Assembly (NCBI RefSeq): GCF_001514305.1
Contig: NZ_KQ949083.1
Span: forward strand, 161,661 to 225,660
From: Streptomyces dysideae
Lineage (GTDB): Bacteria; Actinomycetota; Actinomycetes; Streptomycetales; Streptomycetaceae
Length of the DNA: 64,000 nucleotides
Reading direction: 5' to 3'
A program made the position numbers and the translations under genes. Below are positions 36,263 to 40,895 of this stretch, in pieces; position 1 is the first letter of the stretch; every line of letters starts with the position of its first letter. The notes below the pieces were generated by a model. The model was given only the letters and a program-made list of their open reading frames with translations, had not been told where the DNA came from and did not search any database.

Positions 36263-37123
36263 TCAGTCCCGGTTCTGTACGTGCTGGTAGCCGAAACGGC
36301 CCTTGATGCAGAGATTGCCGTGGGTCACCGGGTTGTCGTGCGGCGAGGTGACCTTCACGATCTCATTGTCCTGCACGTGCAGAGTGAGGTTGCAGCCCAC
36401 TCCGCAGTACGCGCACACGGTCGTCGTCTCCGTCTGTGCCGACTCGTCCCACGTACCCGCCGCCCGCATGTCGAACTCCGACTTGAACGACAGCGCCCCC
36501 GTCGGGCACACCTCGATGCAGTTCCCGCAGTACACGCACGCCGAGTCGGTCAGCGGAGCGTCGTGCTCGACCGCGATCCGGGCGCCGAAGCCACGACCCG
36601 CGATGGAGATCGCGAAGGTGTTCTGCCACTGGTCGCCACAGGCGTCCACGCACTTGTAGCAGAGGATGCACTTGTCGTAGTCGCGTACATACAGGTCGTT
36701 GTCGACCTTCGGCTCCTCGTCGAGGCGGGCCGCGTCCGGGCCGAAACGGTCCGGCTTCGCCTCGTACTCCTTGAGCCATCCGGCCACCTGCGGTGTCGTG
36801 GACAGGTCGACCGAGGAGGCGAGCAGTTCGAGGACGATCTTGCGGCTGTGCCGGGCGCGCTCGGTGTCGGTCCGCACCTCCATGCCGGGCTCCGCCTTCC
36901 GGGAGCAGGCCGGGACGAGAGTGCGGGAGCCCTCGACCTCGACGACGCAGACCCGACAGGCGTTCTTGGGGGTGAGCGTGTCGCCCTGGCACAGGGTCGG
37001 GATGTCCTTCCCGGCGGCCCGGCAGGCGTCGAGGATCGTGGAGCCCTCGGGGACCCGGGCCGGTTCCCCGTCGATCGTGAACTCCAGCAGCCGGCGCGGG
37101 ATCCCCAGCGGTGTCACGGTCAT
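36263..37123 (-). CDS. Formate dehydrogenase alpha, N-terminal iron-sulfur half (2Fe-2S, 4Fe-4S, Mo/W Fe4S4 domains)
   Basis: The 286-residue protein is the electron-transfer half of an NAD-dependent formate dehydrogenase alpha subunit. In order it has a NuoG-like 2Fe-2S domain (PTLCQGDTLTPKNACRVC, later PAC), two ferredoxin 4Fe-4S motifs (DKCILCYKCVDACG and DSACVYCGNCIEVCP), and the 4Fe-4S domain that normally starts the molybdopterin subunit (CAYCGVGCNLTLHV then GNLCIKGRFGYQ). The protein stops there, where single-chain homologues run on into the catalytic domain; that domain is encoded separately at 38949-40895. The ATG overlaps the preceding stop (ATGA at 37120-37123). Confidence 0.9.
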   Translation of the reverse strand: MTVTPLGIPRRLLEFTIDGEPARVPEGSTILDACRAAGKDIPTLCQGDTLTPKNACRVCVVEVEGSRTLVPACSRKAEPGMEVRTDTERARHSRKIVLELLASSVDLSTTPQVAGWLKEYEAKPDRFGPDAARLDEEPKVDNDLYVRDYDKCILCYKCVDACGDQWQNTFAISIAGRGFGARIAVEHDAPLTDSACVYCGNCIEVCPTGALSFKSEFDMRAAGTWDESAQTETTTVCAYCGVGCNLTLHVQDNEIVKVTSPHDNPVTHGNLCIKGRFGYQHVQNRD

Positions 37124-38952: not shown

Positions 38953-40895
38953 CTCACGTAGGTCGCGACCGGGAGCTTCTCGATGCGGATCGCCGACGCC
39001 TTGAACTCCGCCGTCCCCGCGATCGGGCAATTGGCCTCGATCGTCAGCTGGTTGGTGTCCACCTCGTCGGGAAAGTGCATGGTCATGAAGGCGAGCCCGG
39101 GCCGCAGCGCGGTGTCGATCCACACGGGCGCGACCACCGACCCGCGCCGCGAGGCCACCTGGACCTCCTCGCCGACCACGACCCCGTACCGTTCCGCGTC
39201 CTCCGGGCACAGCTCGAGGTACTCGCCGCGCCGCAGCGGGGACGCAAGACCCCCGCTCTGCACACCGGTGTTGTACGAGTCGAGCCGCCTGCCGGTGGTG
39301 AGCCGGATCGGGAACTCCTCGTCCGTCAGGTCCACGGGCGGATCGTGCTGCACGATCCCGAAGGGCGCCGGCAGCCCGCGCCGCGCCGGGTCCGTCTCCC
39401 ACAACCGGCCGTGCAAATAGGTCGGTTCGAGCTCGTCCGTGCTCGGGCACGGCCACTGGATGCCCTGGTGCTCCGCCAGGCGTTCGTACGTCATCCCGTA
39501 GTGGTCCGGCGACACCGACCGCAGCTCGTTCCACACGGTCTCGGAGTCGGCGTACTTCCACTCGTGCCCGAGGCGTGCCGCCAGATCACAGAGGATGTCG
39601 ATGTCCTCGCGCGCCTCACCGGGCGGCGTGACCGCACGCCGTACCCGCTGAACCCGCCGCTCGCTGTTGGTGGTGGTGCCGTCGGTCTCCGCCCAGCCGG
39701 CGGTCGCGGGCAGGACGACGTCCGCCAGCTCGGCGGTCTTGGTGAGGAAGATGTCCTGTACGACGAGGAAGTCCAGCGCCCGGAGCCGCCGTACCGCCTG
39801 CTCGCTGTCCGCCTCCGACTGCGCCGGGTTCTCGCCGATGCAGTAGACGGCCCTGAGCGTGCCCTCCTCCATCGCCTCGAACATCTCCGTCAGGTTCAGC
39901 CCGTAGTGCGGCTGGATGACGGTGTCCCAGGCCGACTCGAACTTCAGCCGGGCCTCGGCGTCGAGGATGTCCTGGAAGCCGGGGAGGCGGTTCGGGATGG
40001 CGCCCATGTCGCCGCCGCCCTGCACGTTGTTCTGGCCGCGCAGGGGCTGCAACCCCGAGCCGTAGCGCCCCACATGCCCGGTCAGCAGGGAGAGGTTGAT
40101 CAGCGCGCGGACGTTGTCGGTGCCGTTGTGGTGCTCGGTGATGCCGAGGGTCCAGCACAGCTGGGCCCGCTCGGCCCGGGCGTAGGCGTGCGCCAACTCC
40201 CGTATGGCGGCGGCCGGTACGCCCGTCACCTTCTCGGCGAGCGACAGCGTCCACGGCTCGACCAGCGCCCGGTACTCCTCGAAGCCGGACGTCGCCCGCT
40301 CGATGAACGCCTCGTTGGCCAGGCCCGCGTGGATGATCTCGCGGCCGATCGCGTGTGCCATCGGGATGTCCGTGCCGACGTTGAGGCCGAGCCAGCTCTC
40401 CGCCCACTCGGCGGTGGAGGTGCGGCGCGGGTCGACGGCGTACATCCGGGCGCCGTTCCTGATCCCCTTGAGCACGTGCTGGAAGAAGATCGGGTGTGCG
40501 AAGCGGGCGTTGGAGCCCCACATCACGATGACGTCGGTGTGCTCGATCTCCTCGTACGACGACGTGCCGCCGCCGGACCCGAAGGCCGCGGACAGGCCGG
40601 CGACGCTCGGGGCGTGGCAGGTCCGGTTGCAGGAGTCGACGTTGTTGGTGCCCATGACGACCCGGGCGAACTTCTGCGCCACGAAGTTCATCTCGTTGGT
40701 CGCGCGGGCGCAGGAGAACATCCCGAACGCGCCGCGCGCCGCCTCGAGCCCTTGGGCCGCCCGGTCCAGCGCCTCGTCCCAACTCGCCTCCCGGAATCGC
40801 TCGTTGCGCGAGTCGCGGACCAGGGGGTGGGTGAGCCGGGTGTAGGTCTTCGGGGTTCGGTCGCGTTTCCTCATACGAGGTTCCCCAGAGTTCAT
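38949..40895 (-). CDS. Formate dehydrogenase alpha, C-terminal molybdopterin catalytic half
   Basis: The 648-residue protein is the molybdenum-bis-MGD catalytic part of formate dehydrogenase. It begins with text that normally follows the iron-sulfur domain (TRLTHPLVRDSRNERFREASWDEAL). It has the Mo-ligand cysteine in SCNRTCHAPSVAGLSAAFG, the MGD-binding VIVMWGSNARFAHP and YCIGENPAQSEAD, the QNNVQGGGDMGAIP segment, and a C-terminal molydopterin-binding barrel (GRRLDSYNTGVQ). It lacks any iron-sulfur cysteine motif of its own; those lie on the 36263-37123 protein. A cysteine, not selenocysteine, is used. The ATG at 40895 overlaps the stop of the PanE-like gene as ATGA. Confidence 0.92.
   Translation of the reverse strand: MNSGEPRMRKRDRTPKTYTRLTHPLVRDSRNERFREASWDEALDRAAQGLEAARGAFGMFSCARATNEMNFVAQKFARVVMGTNNVDSCNRTCHAPSVAGLSAAFGSGGGTSSYEEIEHTDVIVMWGSNARFAHPIFFQHVLKGIRNGARMYAVDPRRTSTAEWAESWLGLNVGTDIPMAHAIGREIIHAGLANEAFIERATSGFEEYRALVEPWTLSLAEKVTGVPAAAIRELAHAYARAERAQLCWTLGITEHHNGTDNVRALINLSLLTGHVGRYGSGLQPLRGQNNVQGGGDMGAIPNRLPGFQDILDAEARLKFESAWDTVIQPHYGLNLTEMFEAMEEGTLRAVYCIGENPAQSEADSEQAVRRLRALDFLVVQDIFLTKTAELADVVLPATAGWAETDGTTTNSERRVQRVRRAVTPPGEAREDIDILCDLAARLGHEWKYADSETVWNELRSVSPDHYGMTYERLAEHQGIQWPCPSTDELEPTYLHGRLWETDPARRGLPAPFGIVQHDPPVDLTDEEFPIRLTTGRRLDSYNTGVQSGGLASPLRRGEYLELCPEDAERYGVVVGEEVQVASRRGSVVAPVWIDTALRPGLAFMTMHFPDEVDTNQLTIEANCPIAGTAEFKASAIRIEKLPVATYVR

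What the first reader, a model, noticed from the sequence alone, without database searches (positions are those of the whole stretch)
36263..40895. Formate dehydrogenase alpha subunit split into two genes with permuted order
The iron-sulfur half (36263-37123) ends at GNLCIKGRFGYQHVQNRD, just where single-chain enzymes pass into the catalytic domain. The catalytic half (38949-40895) begins with the continuation (TRLTHPLVRD). The NuoE-NuoF gene lies between, so transcription order is catalytic half, beta, iron-sulfur half, fdhD. The Mo-proximal 4Fe-4S cluster and the Mo cofactor would therefore lie on different chains, an unusual assembly problem.
Basis: partly seen in the sequence, partly recalled or inferred. 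Interest (0 to 1): 0.55.

Follow-up and report, generated by a model that had tools for sequence, protein, structure and literature searches.

The report
Formate dehydrogenase split across two genes
A molybdenum enzyme that burns formate to carbon dioxide is here coded as two half-chains where most known relatives use one long chain, and the same old split turns up in several groups of bacteria, often with selenium at the active site.

Summary
Confirmed. The FDH alpha chain is carried by two genes: an iron-sulfur half (36263-37123, 286 aa, ending with the Molybdop_Fe4S4 domain) and a catalytic half (38949-40895, 648 aa), with a NuoE-NuoF fusion gene between them. The halves align to adjoining ranges of one solved chain (MeFDH1 69-343 and 341-981). 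It is no local accident: 94 of 94 split loci classified have the order catalytic - NuoEF - iron-sulfur, in actinobacteria and in MAGs binned to other phyla. The 31 single-chain relatives are 33-46% identical and mostly run NuoE/F - alpha, so the split order is a circular permutation. 50 split loci have TGA (selenocysteine) at the Mo ligand; 41, the window included, have cysteine and form one clade. This genome's continuous alpha lies beside its own NuoEF. Best reading: a working NAD-linked FDH of three chains, Mo-bis-MGD and proximal cluster on different chains. A three-subunit enzyme of matching make-up is in print (Actinomycetospora FDH3, PMC7176365); the passages seen do not mention a split. 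New variant of a known kind.

The parts
38949..40895 (-). catalytic half of FDH alpha (648 aa): Mo-bis-MGD domains, Mo ligand Cys93, His94, Arg286 (roles by homology)
37120..38943 (-). NuoE-NuoF fusion (607 aa, GTG start): [2Fe-2S] thioredoxin-like domain, FMN/NAD domain, C-terminal [4Fe-4S]
36263..37123 (-). iron-sulfur half of FDH alpha (286 aa): one [2Fe-2S], two [4Fe-4S] and the Mo-proximal [4Fe-4S] domain; 16 ligand Cys and Lys274; no His-Cys motif; start overlaps the NuoEF stop by 4 bases
35407..36255 (-). fdhD sulfurtransferase, last gene of the run
40892..41863 (-). ketopantoate-reductase-family protein (323 aa), overlaps the catalytic half by 4 bases; upstream of 40 of 41 Cys-type split loci; role unknown
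42062..43393 (+). divergent MFS transporter, below every transporter cut-off listed; a relative lies next to 10 of 40 Cys-type loci (many of the rest are cut short upstream); likely but untested context

Best explanation
The minus-strand genes encode a cytoplasmic NAD-linked Mo formate dehydrogenase whose alpha chain was cut, long ago and probably once, between the proximal-cluster domain (Molybdop_Fe4S4) and the Mo-bis-MGD domains. Shown: two intact genes, their tiling on one chain, the conserved order, the conserved ligands, and joint inheritance of the halves. Inferred: NuoEF and the iron-sulfur half form a diaphorase module (as HoxEFU does in NAD-reducing hydrogenases); the catalytic half takes up Mo-bis-MGD with FdhD; the two dock without a covalent link. 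Formate is oxidised at Mo (Cys93, His94, Arg286). Electrons leave the pterin, cross the chain boundary by Lys274 (role recalled from FDH-H) to the proximal cluster on the iron-sulfur half, and run through two [4Fe-4S] and the [2Fe-2S] to FMN and NAD on NuoEF. The gene order is a circular permutation of the usual NuoE-NuoF-alpha order. Tandem duplication with loss of opposite ends would give it in one step (inferred, not shown).
For: Domain split with no overlap. FeS-half model on MeFDH1 7vw6_A 69-343 (Z 21.1, rmsd 2.2) and catalytic-half model on 341-981 (Z 44.1, rmsd 1.8); on FdsA 6tg9_A 21-307 and 305-936. Each half is predicted alone with confidence (pLDDT 91.4 and 89.6). 94 of 94 split loci: catalytic - NuoEF - FeS. 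In 22 of 31 single-chain relatives the FeS match ends at residue 286 and the catalytic match begins at residue 20 in the next codon. Of 16 ligand Cys, 15 are kept in 60 of 60 aligned sequences and one in 59 of 60; Lys274 in 60 of 60. Mo ligand 93 (Sec read as Cys), His94 and Arg286 are invariant in 58 of 58. Halves co-inherited: distance correlation 0.867 over 90 split loci, permutation maximum 0.152. FDH3 of Actinomycetospora: three subunits of 640, 614 and 316 aa seen by proteomics, and formate removal needs selenium (PMC7176365, passages).
Against: No complex was modelled (single-chain folding only), and no activity, stoichiometry or metal content is known for the window's enzyme. The split clade has support 1.0 in the catalytic tree but only 0.668 in the FeS tree. 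In the selenium group alone the correlation of the halves is lower (0.550, permutation maximum 0.224). FDH3 is matched by description and lengths only; its sequence was not compared, and that strain has two other selenium FDHs, so its formate removal is not assigned to FDH3 alone.
Confidence: 0.86

Rival explanations
1. The two halves are rejoined after translation by a split intein (protein trans-splicing), so the mature alpha is one chain.
For: The cut lies precisely at one point, and the halves abut.
Against: Little room for intein parts: the FeS frame ends 0-38 residues after the match in 92 of 94 split loci, 0 in the window; the other two are 74 residues and a frame that runs on 320 codons across fdhD. 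The catalytic half can begin about 4-6 residues before RLT in some loci, and Pfam reports no intein domain on the window's proteins.
Confidence: 0.02
2. The 286-aa protein serves another molybdoenzyme, and the catalytic half works alone or with another partner.
For: Two of seven other MopB frames of this genome (L006, L007) show no Molybdop_Fe4S4 match.
Against: FeS, NuoEF and catalytic half stand together in 94 of 94 loci classified as split. The two orphan-looking proteins are 31-32% identical over part of P0002 and have up to 139-200 residues in front of the match.
Confidence: 0.05
3. The split state is ancestral and single-chain alphas are later fusions.
For: The split is old and wide.
Against: The Fe4S4 domain and the MopB domain share one chain in the solved single-chain FDHs, in NuoG-like chains and in five of seven other MopB frames of this genome; split loci form one group in both trees. 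The trees are unrooted.
Confidence: 0.08
4. The operon is a relic: FDH activity is lost or being lost in Streptomyces.
For: At least 9 of 61 same-genus genomes keep only a 3' piece of the FeS gene, all 9 beside fdhD (the list was capped).
Against: In the window all five frames are intact and the ligands are kept; 21 of 61 same-genus genomes carry the FeS gene at 80% identity or more.
Confidence: 0.05

Closest known systems
FDH3 (FdhA3-FdhB3-FdhC3) of Actinomycetospora chiangmaiensis DSM 45062 (PMC7176365)
   Same: Cytoplasmic NAD-linked FDH of three subunits of 640, 614 and 316 aa, sizes that match catalytic half, NuoEF and FeS half
   Different: Described as selenocysteine-containing (the window's has Cys). 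Sequence not compared here. The passages seen call the 316-aa protein 'gamma subunit' and do not say that it is part of an alpha chain
FdsABGD of Rhodobacter capsulatus (6tg9) and MeFDH1 of Methylorubrum extorquens (7vw6)
   Same: Same domains and, by homology, the same electron path from Mo-bis-MGD to FMN; MeFDH1 also shows no His-Cys motif at the aligned place
   Different: Alpha is one chain there. FdsD was not searched for around the window's genes
HoxEFU diaphorase of NAD-reducing [NiFe] hydrogenases (organisation recalled)
   Same: NuoE/NuoF plus a separate NuoG-N-terminal-like iron-sulfur protein
   Different: HoxU-type matches end before the Molybdop_Fe4S4 domain (HoxU model matches residues 14-215); here that domain is kept on the iron-sulfur chain
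Formylmethanofuran dehydrogenase FwdB/FwdD (recalled; only a FwdB match was seen)
   Same: A MopB enzyme whose catalytic chain is split into two genes
   Different: There the C-terminal dinucleotide-binding domain is the separate part (recalled); the Fe4S4 domain stays with FwdB (recalled)

Membership tests
NAD-linked Mo/W formate dehydrogenase (FdsA/FdhF catalytic type) | MopB catalytic domains with Mo ligand Cys/Sec followed by His, and the PLRGQNNVQG Arg | tested here: met
   C93, H94 and R286-GQNNVQG invariant in 58 aligned sequences; TIGR01591 is the best NCBIfam match, 616.3 bits
NAD-linked Mo/W formate dehydrogenase (FdsA/FdhF catalytic type) | TIGR01591 curated cut-off for the whole protein (666.25 bits) | tested here: not met
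   616.3 bits; positions 1-52 lie on the other chain (54.4 bits there). The own-genome single-chain alpha scores 751.8
NAD-linked Mo/W formate dehydrogenase (FdsA/FdhF catalytic type) | Proximal [4Fe-4S] domain on the same chain as bis-MGD (stated for bacterial FDHs in PMC7171172, passage) | tested here: not met
   PF04879 on P0001 only
NAD-linked Mo/W formate dehydrogenase (FdsA/FdhF catalytic type) | NuoE/NuoF-type diaphorase with FMN and NAD site | tested here: met
   PF01257, PF01512, PF10531, PF10589 on P0003
NAD-linked Mo/W formate dehydrogenase (FdsA/FdhF catalytic type) | Formate-dependent NAD reduction | not testable with these tools
   needs the enzyme
FdsA subgroup with A4 cluster | H-x3-C-x2-C-x5-C motif | tested here: not met
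   0 of 94 split loci, 20 of 30 single-chain relatives
HoxU / stand-alone NuoG N-terminal protein | [2Fe-2S] plus dicluster without Molybdop_Fe4S4 domain | tested here: not met
   PF04879 at 232-284, 75.4 bits; HoxU model 134 bits against cut-off 333

The most novel reading that the evidence does not exclude
An old, cross-phylum class of formate dehydrogenases builds the core unit of MopB enzymes (bis-MGD plus proximal [4Fe-4S] cluster) across two separately made chains. It arose by circular permutation of a NuoE-NuoF-alpha operon, ancestrally as a selenoprotein whose UGA moved from about codon 360 to about codon 80 of its frame, so that the Mo/Se chain can be made, matured and even encoded apart from the electron-transfer module.
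Probability: 0.4. Interest if true: 0.66.

Novelty: new variant of a known kind. Interest (0 to 1): 0.5.

Why it matters
A cryo-EM paper on this enzyme class says that bacterial FDHs all share a bis-MGD subunit that also binds the proximal cluster (PMC7171172, passage). This family breaks that rule in many lineages, would let cofactor insertion and cluster assembly be studied on separate chains, and gives engineers a natural cut point. The cut also drops the catalytic half below the cut-off of the curated alpha-subunit model, so such FDHs may be under-annotated (inferred).

Tried and rejected
Sequencing or assembly error: rejected, because the same permuted order is in 94 of 94 split loci. Independent fissions in G098 and G134 (short frames): contig ends. 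Frames of about 350-373 aa with 40-45% identity looked split; the four fetched (L082-L085) are single-chain with a TGA 76-78 codons on, where the Sec codon is expected. The insert of about 20 residues in family f19 is not a His-Cys cluster. PLSDB plasmids: 174 records match, all below 60% identity, best row 37.7%, so no close relative of the FeS half there.

Literature: (listings and abstract starts; one search returned 0 papers) showed no title or abstract start about a split FDH alpha; led to PMC7176365. Of PMC7176365, PMC7171172, PMC13397495, PMC13332983 and PMC7325909 I saw passages only; the last three gave nothing on the split. Only open-licence PMC papers are held, and supplements could not be read, so I do not claim that the split is unpublished. 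In the VIA lists only 50 rows are shown, so absences there mean nothing.

Rows dropped before counts: one search left out L001-L014, L057-L059, L064, L065 and loci without a long FeS match; of 155 loci counted, 30 were 'other' (FeS seen, catalytic half not visible: mostly short or cut loci, also deletions and unlinked cases). One search used 90 of 94 split and 29 of 31 single rows (the rest short or broken in frame). Alignment A2 has 60 and A3 58 chosen rows, thinned by identity; L101 was left out of A2, L150, L167 and L170 out of A3. The 94 loci are not independent: some genomes came in through two tools, many are Streptomyces, and looked for motifs of the split FeS half, so 94 against 31 is no measure of how common either form is.

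Full report
The window lies on contig C9 of a 10.77-Mb genome. The closest named loci are Streptomyces, with FeS halves up to 96% identical, so I take the genus as Streptomyces (inferred). On the minus strand five genes follow each other: a ketopantoate-reductase-family gene (41863-40892), the FDH catalytic half (40895-38949), a NuoE-NuoF fusion (38943-37120), the FDH iron-sulfur half (37123-36263) and fdhD (36255-35407). The first two, and NuoEF with the iron-sulfur half, overlap by 4 bases, so coupled translation is likely (inferred).

The split is exact. Pfam puts Molybdop_Fe4S4 at 232-284 of the 286-aa protein, while the 648-aa protein begins with the Molybdopterin domain at residue 20. 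TIGR01591 is shared out as positions 1-52 and 52-672. In 22 of 31 single-chain relatives the match to the first protein ends at its last residue, and the match to the second begins at its residue 20 in the next codon; the other 9 are off by a few codons. AlphaFold models of the halves (pLDDT 91.4 and 89.6) align to adjoining ranges of the same solved chains: 7vw6_A 69-343 and 341-981; 6tg9_A 21-307 and 305-936.

Ligands are kept. In 60 aligned FeS regions (47 split, 13 single-chain), 15 of the 16 ligand Cys and Lys274 are invariant and the sixteenth Cys is kept in 59. In 58 aligned catalytic regions Cys93 (or Sec), His94 and Arg286 are invariant. The His-Cys motif of the off-path A4 cluster of FdsA (PMC7171172, passages) is in none of 94 split loci and in 20 of 30 single-chain relatives. 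MeFDH1 shows none at the aligned place either.

The split is old and wide. In 61 same-genus genomes, 21 carry the FeS gene at 80% identity or more and at least 9 a 3' piece. Of 394 genomes of the class, 24 have a close FeS gene: 8 of the same genus and 16 of one other family, f19 (69-82% over the gene in the 13 f19 loci read). Of 396 genomes of the phylum, 41 do, 36 of them outside the genus. Of those 36 I fetched 16: in all 16 the FeS frame ends near the cut, 57-69% identical, and catalytic half, NuoEF and FeS half stand in order in 15; the other (L068) is cut off by its contig end. MAG labels may be wrong for single contigs. Of 155 loci with a long FeS match, 94 were split, 31 single-chain and 30 undecided; all 94 had NuoEF between the halves. 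Single-chain relatives are 33-46% identical, and NuoE/F lies upstream of alpha in 27 of the 28 where it was seen. The split order is thus a circular permutation of theirs.

Trees of each half (90 split, 29 single-chain) put all split loci in one group: support 1.0 for the catalytic half but only 0.668 for the FeS half. Pairwise distances of the two halves correlate at 0.867 over 90 split loci (permutation maximum 0.152), against 0.911 in single-chain ones; within the selenium group alone 0.550 (permutation maximum 0.224). The halves have therefore mostly travelled together.

Selenium. At the Mo ligand 50 of 94 split loci have in-frame TGA, 41 have Cys, and 3 are cut off; in the 15 TGA loci whose letters I printed, His follows. 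The 41 Cys loci form one clade in both trees (0.905, 0.914), and the TGA loci do not form a clade of their own, so selenocysteine looks ancestral. A tRNA-Sec of 60 bits or more is present in all 16 deep genomes tested (TGA seen directly in 14 of them). The 9 Cys-type genomes reach 40.4-48.4 bits, two of them (the own genome, 47.4, and G128, 48.4) just over the 47-bit cut-off; the search also rings in all 14 control genomes, over the cut-off in 5, so I read those as cross-matches. The ketopantoate-reductase-family gene precedes 40 of 41 Cys loci and, in the DNA held, none of the 50 TGA loci. L038 lacks it, and Halopolyspora (below) has it together with a TGA catalytic half.

The halves can be encoded apart. 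I checked three genomes whose FeS locus showed NuoEF but no catalytic half; a split-type one with TGA was found elsewhere in each: in Halopolyspora algeriensis on the same contig, about 12 kb from NuoEF on the other strand, with no NuoEF within 1.5 kb; in two Chloroflexi MAGs on other contigs, one of them only a contig-end piece. Joining by read-through or frameshift is excluded at least in Halopolyspora; contig breaks weaken the MAG cases.

The own genome also carries a continuous alpha on C12 (935-aa frame, own Fe4S4 domain) beside its own NuoEF, and a second fdhD on C21 (87% identical). By position the continuous alpha is not a partner for the window's NuoEF.

Literature. PMC7171172 (passages) says that bacterial FDHs all share a bis-MGD subunit that also binds the proximal cluster, and gives the direct chain A1-A2-A3-A5-B6 to FMN. 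PMC7176365 (passages) reports FDH3 with chains of 640, 614 and 316 aa found by proteomics, and selenium-dependent formate removal that it ascribes to FDH1 and FDH3; it names the FDH3 chains alpha, beta and gamma. I saw no statement on a split there; its supplements were not read, and the match to this family rests on description and lengths.

Mechanism. Domain content, ligands and homology support NAD-linked formate oxidation through the usual cofactors; the step across the chain boundary and non-covalent docking are inferred. Why the cut is kept is unknown. Two ideas: separate maturation of the Mo/Se chain, and a UGA close to the start of its gene (about codon 80, from the starts seen, instead of about 360, from the frames), which would waste less on premature stops. 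Neither was tested.

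Noticed in passing
L024-L032, L060-L062 (unnamed same-genus genomes): In at least 9 of 61 same-genus genomes, and three more, most of the FDH genes are gone but about 30-200 codons from the end of the FeS gene survive just upstream of a kept fdhD; perhaps the leader needed to translate fdhD. One fdhD (L030) is itself out of frame.
   Followed up: partly
window 40892-41863; L044-L056, L086-L116: A ketopantoate-reductase-family gene sits before the catalytic half in 40 of 41 Cys-type split loci and, in the DNA held, in none of 50 TGA-type ones; Halopolyspora has the gene with a TGA-type catalytic half elsewhere. 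Role unknown.
   Followed up: partly
L188 and L117 (Halopolyspora algeriensis, 43.5-kb contig): Catalytic half and NuoEF-FeS module about 12 kb apart on opposite strands.
   Followed up: partly
window 42062-43393: Divergent MFS transporter: L-lactate MFS model 305 bits (cut-off 320), oxalate/formate family 174.6 (cut-off 374.85), so substrate open; a relative is next to 10 of 40 Cys-type loci, many others being cut short.
   Followed up: partly
L004 (G000:C51): A MopB oxidoreductase (no curated cut-off reached) fused in one frame to a CysJ-like flavodoxin/FAD reductase.
   Followed up: no
L136 (Streptomyces minutiscleroticus): No catalytic half found; only ends of the reductase-family and NuoEF genes are left, while FeS and fdhD match nearly whole.
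   Followed up: no
L147: FeS half with an open tail of 74 codons beyond the usual end.
   Followed up: no
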